Source of the DNA: Prorocentrum cordatum
Lineage: Eukaryota; Sar; Dinophyceae; Prorocentrales; Prorocentraceae
Length of the DNA stretch: 64,000 bases
Direction: 5' to 3'
Assembly (NCBI GenBank): GCA_963575745.1
Contig: CAUYUJ010018460.1
Span: 728,942-792,941 of the forward strand
Made by a program: the position numbers and the translations under genes. Shown piece by piece: positions 5,898 through 30,569 of the stretch (positions are counted from its first letter, which is position 1; every line of letters begins with the position of its first letter). The notes beneath the pieces were generated by a model that worked only from the letters and a program-made list of their open reading frames with translations, ran no database searches and was not told where the DNA came from.

Positions 5898-6549
5898 GTA
5901 TACGTCTGATATCTGGCCTGTACGTTTGGTACATTTATCTAAAGACATATGTATACATAGATGTGTGCGTGTGACTGTATGTGGGCGGGTGTACCTGAAC
6001 ATTTGCGCACACGGGTCCGTGTGTGTACACAAGTACATGCATGCACATGTTATGTATGCACATGTTATGCACACACACACCGGCATACCATGCATGCACC
6101 CACACACGCAAATCTGTACATAAAGGCATGTACAGCCTAGTTAGCGCACGTGTTCAAAACGGAATATACTCGTTCAGGTGGTTGTATGTTTGTCAGAGGT
6201 GGGGGGTGAGATCGCAGTGAATCGGAGACCCCCCACCGGGAAATCGGTTTCGGTTTCGTGCTCGTGTCGTGCGTGCGGGCGAGGCGAAGCTGCGCGTGAT
6301 CCTCCTGCAGCTAGGCCGACGTAGGAGCGAGAGTTCGTTGACCCTCCGCCGGTGGCTGGGAGGTGATCCCAGTGGGGCCGGGCGGTGTCCTCCCGCGCGC
6401 CAGTGGCCGGGAGGTGTCCCGGTTGGGCCGGGCGGGCGGTGTCCCGGGTGTCCCGGGCGTCCCGGCGCTAACGCAGGTCGCTGATTTCATAGTAGTTCGT
6501 TTTTTTCGGCGCCTGCGGCGGGCTTTCTTATCCAATCCAGCTCATCGTA

Positions 6550-6578
6550 ATCCAGAAGCCGCATTAAAGTGATCATTT
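6550..6578 (+). repeat. Left terminal inverted repeat of the giant element
   Basis: Twenty-nine bases starting ATCCAGAAGCCG and ending GTGATCATTT, identical to the reverse complement of 30539-30567. TA precedes it at 6548-6549. Confidence 0.88.
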
Positions 6579-6688
6579 CCCCCCTCTGTGACAGAGGGGG
6601 TGTTTTTCGGACCCCCTCTGTGACAGAGGGGGTGCGTTCGGAGGCCCTCTGTGACAGAGGGGGTGCGTTCGGTCTCTGCGACAGAGTT
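6579..6688. repeat. Left subterminal palindrome array
   Basis: Three good copies of CCCCTCTGTGACAGAGGGG lie at 6579-6600, 6611-6633 and 6643-6664, and a degenerate fourth lies at 6671-6688, spaced about 30 bp. Each is a near-perfect palindrome broken only at the central GTGAC. Their place next to the TIR suggests transposase binding or end recognition (inference). Confidence 0.75.
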
Positions 6689-7110
6689 GCTCGTCACCCC
6701 GTTCCTCCTCATCCTGCTTCTTGATTTCGGATATGTCATGCTACCACTGCGCTCATCATCTTTGCGTCTGTGATCCTCGTCGTGTTGTTCCATGCGTCAT
6801 TTTCACAATTTCCACCACATTATCCTCCGTTGCCGTTCTGGCCCGCCATCTACCTCGTCACTCTCCTTCGTCTGCATGTCCTTATTCTTTTCCGCTCTTT
6901 TTTCGCCTCCCTCTGGTTCGATTTCCGCTCTTCGTCCACTTCGTTCATTCGTTTCCAACCCCCCTTCCTTTCAAGTTCCCCGCCGTCCAATCACGTCGCG
7001 TCGTCCGCCGCCGCTATGCTCAAACCACCCCGCGCCCGTGGGATCGCCCGCGAGCACCGGTGCAGCTGGGCCCGTCGCGGCCTAACGCGCGCCTGCGCCA
7101 TCGTCTTGCA

Positions 7111-8256
7111 ATGGGCGATGCAGGCGGATACACATGGGATGGCGCGGGAGGATGGTGGGATAGCCGCAGCAGCGGCTGGCGTGGCTGGGAGGACGGCCAT
7201 GATTGGTCAGCGAGGGGTTGGAGAGACTGGCGACAAGACGGGCACACGCCAACGGAGGACGCCAAATGGCGCGATGGCCCTGCCGCCGCAGCAGCGGCGG
7301 CGGTCTCGTCTCAACGGCCGTCTCGCTTCGCCGCGCTTAGCGTTGTGAGCCCCCGCGCCCCTGGTCTCGGCAAGCCCGAATTCGATAATTTCGTGAGGGC
7401 TGCCCTCCGAAACGTACCAGAACTTGGGAACGCAGTTTCAGGAGAGGGGTCGGGATCCCGAGCCGCGCCTGCGGCGCAGGAGCCCCGCGCCACCGCAGCG
7501 GCGGCGGCGCGCGGGCCCCAGGATTTTGAGAAGTTTGATGTTAATTATTTTTTGAGTTATGAAGAGAGGCTCGGCACTTCGTTTAAGCAACACAATCAAG
7601 CGTTGAAATGGTGGCGCCATCTGAATGAAGACCCAACTGCCCCGTTCGAGTCAGAAGCCAAGTGGTTTGACAATGCGAAGCCCACCATGGTCGCTGTTTG
7701 CGACCACGGTGCGAGGACGAGCTTTGGTTTCAAAAGCGACGAGGAAGTCCCTTGGCGGTGGCAAGAGATGGTGGCGACGCTCAGGGAGGAAGATATCAGG
7801 GAGGTCGTGGAGGGGCCCCGCAGCAGCGGGGCTCTGATCGGCTGTTCCCTCGAAGTCCGGCCAAACAGCTACGACCACATGCGTCAGAGTATTGTGCGCG
7901 CGCGACAGTTCGCGGGGCAGCGGGTGAAAGTGAAGCTGCCGATGTGGGATTTCGTGTTGCACCGCGACGACGGGACAGGCGTCCGTTTACACCCGCACTG
8001 GGGCGACAGGAAGGTCGAAGCTCTGCCCCTCGTCCCCCACGCGGACACGGTGAGGCCACCAACCGCGGGTTTGGGCGGGAGCGACGGGTCAGGAACTTTT
8101 CGCTGGCACAAGGACCTCGGTGTGGAGCGCAAGGTCAAGTTCGACGCCGCCAGAGAGAAGGGGAGGCCGACGCCCTCTCAGGGGCCCCGCAGCAGCGGGG
8201 CCGCGGCGTCCAGCACCAGGCCCTCGGCGTCCGCAGCAGCGGGTGGCAAACAGTAG
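7111..8256 (+). CDS. Dinoflagellate-expanded protein with NSYDH and WDFVLHRDDGT motifs
   Basis: A 381-residue protein from an ATG at 7111 to TAG at 8254. The N-terminal 60 residues are rich in Trp and Gly (GGWWDSRSSGWRGWEDGHDW). An Ala/Pro-rich linker follows, then a conserved half with CSLEVRPNSYDHMRQ and WDFVLHRDDGTGVRLHPHW. From memory the conserved half matches an uncharacterised family with many copies in dinoflagellate proteomes; its function is unknown. Upstream sequence is open but lacks another convincing start. Core hairpins fall inside the gene at 7282-7301, 7815-7832, 8183-8202 and 8231-8242 and are translated in more than one frame (AAAA and RSSG). It is the first gene of the giant element, about 530 bp from the left end. 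Confidence 0.7.
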   Translation: MGDAGGYTWDGAGGWWDSRSSGWRGWEDGHDWSARGWRDWRQDGHTPTEDAKWRDGPAAAAAAAVSSQRPSRFAALSVVSPRAPGLGKPEFDNFVRAALRNVPELGNAVSGEGSGSRAAPAAQEPRATAAAAARGPQDFEKFDVNYFLSYEERLGTSFKQHNQALKWWRHLNEDPTAPFESEAKWFDNAKPTMVAVCDHGARTSFGFKSDEEVPWRWQEMVATLREEDIREVVEGPRSSGALIGCSLEVRPNSYDHMRQSIVRARQFAGQRVKVKLPMWDFVLHRDDGTGVRLHPHWGDRKVEALPLVPHADTVRPPTAGLGGSDGSGTFRWHKDLGVERKVKFDAAREKGRPTPSQGPRSSGAAASSTRPSASAAAGGKQ

Positions 8257-9245
8257 TTTTGGGACCGAATAACTCCCCAGACGATTTGGTTTCGGAGTAG
8301 ATGGCTCCGCAGCAGCAGCGGGGCTCGAATGAAGGGCGCGTTGCATTTCTGCAGGGGCGCGCGCGTCGGCCGCCGAGATCGGGAGCGCTCGTGCAGGCGC
8401 CGTGGCGCGATCTTCGTAAAGAAGTCTTCCCTCTCCTCCCTGTCCCCCCATCCCGCCGCCCTCAACGTCGGCTCCTCGCCGCCCGTTCCTCGTCGCTCCA
8501 CGCCTGTTCGTTCTCCTCCAATTTCCTCTCCCGCTTCCTCGTTCTCTCCTTCCCATTTTTCCCTCCATCCCATTGCATCCCTGGCACCCCAGCGAAGTTC
8601 GCAGTTCGAAGTTTGAAGTTCGGAGTTCGAAGGTTGCAGTTTGAATTTCGAAGCTTCGCACTTCGAGGTTCGATCTTCGAACCTTCGTCATCTCGTCGTC
8701 GTAATCGTCGTCCTCGTTCGTCGTCGTCGTTCCTCGTCGGCGTCGATTGTCGTTGTCGTCGTCGCTCGTTGTCGTCGTCGCCGTCGTCGTCGTGGTCGGT
8801 CGTCGTCGTCGGTCGTTGTCGTCGCTAGTCGTCGTCGCTGGTCGCCGTCGTGGTCATCGTCCTCGTCGTCGTCGTCGTGGTCGTCGTCGCCCTCGTTGTC
8901 GCCGTCGTGGTCATCGTCGTCGTCGTTGTCGTGAAACGCCCCACGTAGGAGGAGCAGAGAAGGGAGTAAGGAGAAATGAGCACGGTGGAGGGAGGAGGGA
9001 GGATTGAACAGGAAGAGGAGGGTACAGATGGAGGTAGAAGGGATGAGGTAGTTCAGAAGTGGGAGCAGCAGACTGGCGCAATGGGAAAAGCCATGTGAGT
9101 GCAGGGAGGGATGGAAATGCGATAAAGTGAAGCCGCAGCCGTTGCAGGTCTGCCTCCCGCCGCGCCCGCCCGCCTCCGCGACTGGAGCCGCGCAGGAGCC
9201 TCTGCCGAAGTCTCCGCAGCAGCGGGGACTGCCAGAGGAGGCTCC
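8254..9245. repeat. Long direct repeat R1 (spacer and 5' leader)
   Basis: Matches 10105-11150 for about 1 kb. Both copies start at TAGTTT...CTCCCCAGACGATTTGGTT, pass through a TTCGAA-rich minisatellite (8596-8690), a long GTC/CGTCGT tract (8695-8935), the phrase CGCCCCACGTAGGAGGAGCA, and end at a hairpin followed by CTGCCAGAGGAGGC. Each copy lies upstream of a gene, so it may hold a shared promoter or 5' exon (inference). Confidence 0.75.
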
Positions 9246-30133: not shown

Positions 30134-30442
30134 ACCATCGCACAGGAGCCGCCCCTCCGCAGCAGCGGAGGGAGGCCTCATCGGCCGAACGTCGACCCTC
30201 CGCAGCAGCGGAGGCCTTGCCAATGCATCGTGAGCGGCGGCGACTCGCGCGCGCCGTCGTGCTCGGCGACTGCTGCCCGAGCGGAGAAGGAAAAAGAATC
30301 GGTGCTTTCATCGGTGCTGTCGTGGCCTCCTCTCCTTCATCGTTTTCTTCTCCCTCCCCCTCCAATCCCCCATCCCGCTATCGCATTTTATCGTCTCCAA
30401 TCGCATCGGGAGCTCCCGTGGCAGAAGAGCACCCAGAACGAG

Positions 30443-30529
30443 GTCCTCCGTGACAGAGGGGGGGCATCTCAGACCCCCTCTGTGACAGAGGGGGGGCATC
30501 TCAGACCCCCTCTGTGACAGAGGGGGGGC
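30443..30529. repeat. Right subterminal palindrome array
   Basis: Three copies of CCTCTGTGACAGAGG, at about 30443-30462, 30473-30494 and 30504-30526, with period 31 bp and spacer GGCATCTCAGA. They mirror the array inside the left TIR. Confidence 0.78.
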
Positions 30530-30538
30530 CAAAACAAC

Positions 30539-30567
30539 AAATGATCACTTTAATGCGGCTTCTGGAT
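30539..30567 (-). repeat. Right terminal inverted repeat of the giant element
   Basis: Exact reverse complement of 6550-6578, followed by TA at 30568-30569. Confidence 0.88.
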
Positions 30568-30569
30568 TA

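What the first reader, a model, noticed from the sequence alone, without database searches (positions are those of the whole stretch)
6548..30569. A 24-kb giant TA-inserting DNA transposon in a dinoflagellate genome
Seen: a perfect 29-bp inverted repeat 24 kb apart, TA on both outer sides, matching host minisatellite on both flanks, matching palindrome arrays just inside both ends, all recognised genes on one strand, and a DD35D integrase domain. Known: TA target duplication and DDE/D catalysis define Tc1/mariner/pogo elements, which are normally only 1-5 kb. Inference: this is one mobile unit with about nine genes, far larger than typical members.
Basis: partly seen in the sequence, partly recalled or inferred. 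Interest (0 to 1): 0.95.

Follow-up and report, generated by a model that had tools for sequence, protein, structure and literature searches.

The report
Giant mariner-like transposon with hairpin tags
A 24,000-letter jumping gene unit, four to five times longer than the longest reported relatives of its likely family, has spread many times through a very large genome (probably a dinoflagellate's), and it is peppered with one small hairpin that always points the same way and was not found in the host DNA tested beside it.

The parts
6548..6578 (+). left TIR, first two bases TA (target duplication)
   Evidence: 493 TIR copies in genome; TA at 99 of the first 100 listed ends
30539..30569 (-). 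right TIR, last two bases TA
6580..6672 (.). left subterminal palindrome array (CCCTCTGTGACAGAGGG x3)
   Evidence: similar array at the left-type ends fetched
18492..18684 (.). middle palindrome array, 5 copies, 41-42 bp period; lies in the most variable 400-bp stretch between copies
30445..30529 (.). right subterminal palindrome array
7111..8256 (+). ORF A, no relatives searched
   Evidence: ORF list; no Pfam match
10937..12796 (+). ORF B; a 111-aa stretch is 63% identical to the second half of P0041, whose first half resembles ORF J
15442..17935 (+). gene C/D: two overlapping ORFs in different frames here; relative P0045 is one 850-aa ORF; SET-like C-terminal fold, weak ParB-like N-terminal fold
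18936..19886 (+). ORF E, 73% identical over 159 aa to ORF F
20740..21285 (+). ORF F, partial duplicate of E
21310..23721 (+). ORF G; DGDCGLDCM resembles an OTU-protease motif (recalled, not tested)
   Evidence: no Pfam match
23854..26908 (+). transposase gene; two ORFs (23854-25452, 25100-26908) in different frames, i.e. broken by a frame slip in this copy; intact copies exist
27554..29590 (+). ORF J, endonuclease/exonuclease/phosphatase(EEP)-like protein, conserved GD-NM and DSCG
   Evidence: weak Pfam Exo_endo_phos E 0.05 in 1 of 4 relatives scanned
29621..30133 (+). ORF K
7164..30211 (+). 46 dispersed hairpins with exact core CCGCAG(C/T)AGCGG, all sense

Best explanation
This is a 24-kb autonomous DNA transposon of the IS630-Tc1-mariner group. 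SHOWN: one unit bounded by 31-bp TIRs with TA outside; hundreds of TIR copies; five full-length copies collinear end to end; a DD35D-type transposase whose model is closest to mariner catalytic domains and which is open in the 45 best-scoring copies; two further genes with relatives; at least one internal deletion derivative. INFERRED: the ~1,000-aa transposase binds the TIRs (and perhaps the subterminal palindromes), cuts the element out by DDE/D chemistry and inserts it at a TA, which is duplicated. The extra proteins (an EEP-like nuclease and a protein with SET-like and perhaps ParB-like folds) may help it work with host chromatin or repair. A separate layer, inferred from position, orientation and conservation: about one hairpin per 500 bases, with an AGCA/AGUA tetraloop (AGNN class), marks the element's sense transcripts as RNA tags bound by an element-borne or host double-strand/tetraloop-binding protein. 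The confidence given is for the transposon reading; for the RNA-tag layer alone I would put about 0.4.
Confidence: 0.85

Rival explanations
1. A giant element of viral kind (polinton-like virus or similar) that uses a mariner-like transposase for integration, as Teratorn couples piggyBac to a herpesvirus.
For: Size, several genes, protist host; polinton-like viruses are reported in the dinoflagellate Oxyrrhis (PMC12721341, title and abstract start in listing).
Against: No capsid, PolB or packaging-ATPase Pfam match in 10 ORFs at E<=1 (13) or in 9 and 11 relatives of genes C and J scanned; no relatives found in IMG/VR contigs with the transposase or its alignment; a 23-base TIR part has 0 exact matches there.
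Confidence: 0.06
2. Composite: a short pogo/mariner unit that captured host segments, passively carried as one 24-kb cargo unit, without function for the extra genes.
For: Internal duplications; near-neutral changes between copies; P0041 joins J- and B-like parts in one ORF (142, 143).
Against: Genes C and J have relatives down to about 30% and 26% identity (49, 31) that keep invariant residues (91, 48), so these genes were long under selection; the hairpin trace is enriched in the relatives of all three gene families (98).
Confidence: 0.2
3. The hairpins are a DNA-level feature: sites for an element protein or the product of template switching that perfects quasi-palindromes, not RNA tags.
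For: WC pairing far above, GU pairing not above shuffles; conserved core among near-neutral copies could reflect homogenisation.
Against: Among 4-base-loop hairpins inside the element the AGCA loop dominates (20 of 28 with stem >=7), so it is not hairpins in general; the trace in relatives is sense only.
Confidence: 0.35
4. Assembly artefact or contaminant.
For: Two of the shorter copies hold 100-N gaps (61, 108).
Against: Same element ends at 28 non-duplicate places (56, 140), 5 of 5 24-kb copies collinear (61).
Confidence: 0.01

Closest known systems
pogo superfamily (IS630-Tc1-mariner group; Passer and Fot are DD35D)
   Same: TA target duplication, TIR under 40 bp, D-D-35-D, large transposase; weak Tc5-type HTH
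   Different: 24 kb with several genes versus 1.20-5.20 kb with one or two ORFs and transposases of 300-977 aa (PMC7386202, passages); no Pfam DDE_1 match in 35 relatives; no tree built
mariner Mos1
   Same: catalytic fold, best solved matches; TA
   Different: 9% identity over 187 aligned residues; transposase about three times and element about twenty times longer (Mos1 sizes recalled)
Giant KDZ, EnSpm and Sola-1 DNA transposons (Ectocarpus)
   Same: over 10 kb, additional genes in many families
   Different: other transposase superfamilies; an autonomous Tc1-mariner family there is 4.4 kb (PMC12477816, passages)
Introner elements of dinoflagellates
   Same: inverted repeats, hairpins, dinoflagellate
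   Different: described as intronic and like non-autonomous elements; these hairpins lie within ORFs and between them in one large element (PMC7789003, passages; PMC10666404, passages)
Rnt1p (yeast RNase III) AGNN tetraloop hairpins
   Same: AGCA/AGUA fit AGNN; stem paired next to the loop
   Different: no such enzyme tested here; a class resemblance only (PMC4334505, passages)

Membership tests
IS630-Tc1-mariner group | TA target-site duplication | tested here: met
   99 of the first 100 listed TIRs have TA outside
IS630-Tc1-mariner group | terminal inverted repeats bounding one mobile unit | tested here: met
IS630-Tc1-mariner group | DDE/D transposase with RNase H-like fold close to mariner | tested here: met
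IS630-Tc1-mariner group | empty site with a single TA | not tested
   joined flanks prepared; searches not answered
pogo superfamily | DD35D spacing | tested here: met
   35 residues between D521 and D557 (34 if D522); Passer and Fot are DD35D
pogo superfamily | CENP-B/Tc5-type HTH DNA-binding domain | tested here: inconclusive
   HTH_Tnp_Tc5 in 4 of 35, best E 2.8e-4, 21.2 bits versus gathering 22.2
pogo superfamily | placement in the pogo clade of a transposase tree | not tested
   no tree built; no reference transposases were fetched
pogo superfamily | element length 1.2-5.2 kb (reported range, not strictly defining) | tested here: not met
   24,022 bp; 5 copies of like length
Polinton or other viral element | PolB, capsid, packaging ATPase | tested here: inconclusive
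   no Pfam match in 10 ORFs, but sequence search is weak for these divergent proteins
SET-domain methyltransferase (gene C/D) | SET fold with cofactor-binding motifs | tested here: inconclusive
EEP nuclease (ORF J) | conserved N/E/D-N/D/H motifs of Exo_endo_phos | tested here: inconclusive
   invariant GD-NM, DSCG and two histidines in 9 sequences; Pfam E 0.05 in 1 of 4 relatives; no PDB sequence match

The most novel reading that the evidence does not exclude
A mariner-group transposon has become a giant, virus-sized genome whose genes all carry an ancient, sense-strand RNA hairpin code (AG-Y-A tetraloop, about one per 500 bases, kept in all three reading frames), read by a dedicated protein so that element transcripts are recognised as a set; with a SET/ParB-like protein acting on host chromatin, this would be a self-tagging mobile regulon unlike any transposon I know of.
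Probability: 0.3. Interest if true: 0.97.

Novelty: new variant of a known kind. Interest (0 to 1): 0.88.

Why it matters
Mariner-group elements are textbook small transposons; a young family of 24 kb with several genes, at least three of them with relatives, moves the size and gene content of this group into the range of viruses and Starships, in what is probably a lineage with very large genomes. The family is testable at once: many near-identical copies, intact transposase genes, defined ends. The oriented hairpins pose a clear new question: what reads one hairpin 46 times in one element and not at all in the host DNA tested beside it.

Tried and rejected
Rejected: TIR unique to the window; artefact; a general excess of hairpins (4-base-loop hairpins with stem >=7 are 1.17 per kb inside and 1.45 outside, but 20 of 28 inside have the loop AGCA and outside ones are mostly TATA/ATAT); the G-U test as proof of RNA (not significant); MFE strand difference (small). 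Led nowhere: IMG/VR scans with the transposase, with its alignment and with a TIR part (17, 30, 32: no relatives); the hairpin 16-mer in IMG/VR gave 28 scattered stretches, 27 with one match and 1 with two, so no hairpin-rich relative there; NCBIfam; PDB sequence searches; Foldseek for gene C (126, nothing at E<=0.001).

Rows dropped or weak: the row 'A2(ATG7113)' was in the wrong frame and is not used; the minus-strand row is a by-look and not in the 13 rows quoted; gene A used the same wrong start. In one search, copy C217 was covered over 22,904 of 24,022 bases. In one search, 2 of 30 ends were duplicates and dropped. Only the first 100 of 493 TIR places and of 368 were listed, so pair and TA counts are from those. 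In one search the masks (three conserved transposase motifs with variants) were applied to all groups; the relatives include P0001 and P0044, which at 98% and 96% identity may come from this same genome. Absence from print: searches, open-licence PMC papers only; no title or abstract start listed names a giant Tc1/mariner/pogo element. In the giant-transposon review PMC6431247 mariner, Tc1 and pogo were found 0 times, but so was 'largest', so this check is weak. For papers cited I saw listings or passages; none was read whole.

Full report
Observation. The perfect inverted repeat is real: 31 identical bases including TA at 6548-6578 and, inverted, at 30539-30569; its first 28 bases occur nowhere else in the window with up to 3 mismatches. 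Subterminal palindromes are as described, and a third array sits near the midpoint. With low-complexity masking, no stretch of the element is shared with the rest of the window at E 1e-5.

One mobile unit. The window lies in an unnamed 4.13-Gb genome of 21,875 contigs. Size and G+C (outside the element 60%) fit Prorocentrum cordatum, 4.15 Gb, 59.7% G+C (PMC10666404, passages); this is an inference. The 28-base TIR pattern with TA, up to 3 mismatches, occurs 242 + 251 times; read backwards it occurs 0 times. Of the 100 places listed, 27 convergent pairs can be formed, and 17 of these are 22.8-25.6 kb; the others are 217 bp, 7.9, 8.7, 15.2, 27.9, 28.1, 33.9, 34.3, 37.5 and 54.1 kb. The TIR without TA occurs 368 times exactly; of the first 100 listed, 99 are also in the TA list, against 1 in 16 by chance. 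Thirty ends were read: each carries a left-type or right-type inner sequence; outer sequences look unrelated by eye except two duplicated pairs.

Five 24-kb copies were fetched in pieces: all five align in order from TIR to TIR, 96.8-98.3% identical, with one unaligned stretch at the middle array of C217, and 175-540 substitutions each against the window. One 8.65-kb copy is an internal deletion (window 12869 joined to 28206), one 217-bp copy is MITE-like with both ends, and two shorter copies hold assembly gaps. A transposase search scored the best 45 of 5831 first-look candidates: all 45 are full-length or nearly so, 97-99% identical, open and without stops. Among the five fetched copies the gene is unbroken in C114 and C2099, and carries a stop or a frame break in C217, C952 and C3891; the window's own copy is broken by a frame slip between its two ORFs. 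The family is therefore young and probably active, with many decaying members.

Hairpins. The exact 12-mer CCGCAG(C/T)AGCGG occurs 46 times in the window, 46 of 46 on the + strand and inside the element, none in antisense; with one mismatch to CCGCAGCAGCGG 60 of 61 are inside, shuffles mean 1.0. At 28 non-duplicate ends, 42 kb of host flank holds none and 42 kb of inner sequence holds 73 sense and 0 antisense; these inner stretches are copies of one family, not independent sequences. They sit in coding frames in all three phases (PQQR, RSSG, AAA) and outside ORFs, so no peptide motif explains them. Beyond the core, flanks pair: 194 Watson-Crick pairs over 8 positions against 146.8 +/- 7.5 in 2000 shuffles, none as high; one stem reaches 21 pairs. 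Across six copies 4 of 564 core positions vary, against 11.9 expected from trinucleotide context and 16.0 in GC-rich control 12-mers (1 of 5000 as low); the adjoining stem positions vary like background (17 of 460 against 3.5%). In relatives of the three gene families, after masking conserved transposase motifs, the trace A[AV]A[EDG] is seen 65 versus 12.5, 19 versus 1.8 and 49 versus 4.8; the antisense trace ATA 11 versus 12.1, 3 versus 2.2, 6 versus 6.3. The reversed control [EDG]A[AV]A is mildly raised in two of three (25 v 10.9, 5 v 2.1, 4 v 5.2), and some other A-x-A patterns too (up to 3.5-fold, ASA in the J group). The relatives' DNA was not seen.

Mechanism. Best supported: TA-directed cut-and-paste by a mariner-type transposase (chemistry inferred from the family). 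The hairpin layer is likely RNA-level because the trace stays sense in genes of distant relatives and the loop fits the AGNN class bound by Rnt1p-type RNase III (PMC4334505, passages); but both strands fold about equally, the G-U test is not significant and outer stems are not conserved between copies, so a DNA role stays open.

Novelty. Pogo elements are reported at 1.20-5.20 kb with one or two ORFs (PMC7386202, passages). Giant DNA transposons are reported for KDZ, EnSpm and Sola-1 in Ectocarpus (PMC12477816, passages). My nine paper searches listed no giant Tc1/mariner/pogo element by title or abstract start. The kind is known; size, gene load and hairpin code make a new variant.

Noticed in passing
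18492-18684: Third CCCTCTGTGACAGAGGG array, 5 copies, centred near the exact midpoint of the element; it switches its central base along the array and lies in the most variable 400-bp stretch between copies.
   Followed up: partly
8252-9196 / 10104-11060; 18812-19394 / 20660-21258; 20257-20621 / 22152-22514: Large internal direct duplications at 85-92% identity, overlapping parts of ORFs B, E, F and G.
   Followed up: no
L057/L058 (G000:C2099): The left flank of this insertion reads, by eye, ANGRLAMMAIIGMF, which resembles a light-harvesting protein (recalled), so a copy may sit in or beside such a gene.
   Followed up: no
window element, six copies: Between-copy changes are mostly T>C and A>G (237 and 183) over C>T and G>A (98 and 68) when polarised by majority.
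   Followed up: no
46707-47951 (-): A 414-aa ORF in the flank, perhaps a host or other mobile gene; no exact hairpin core lies there.
   Followed up: no
G000:C146 and G000:C436: Two pairs of TIR ends share identical outer flanks, about 18 and 24 kb apart (L031/L032, L039/L040), as if insertion sites were duplicated with the element or misassembled.
   Followed up: no
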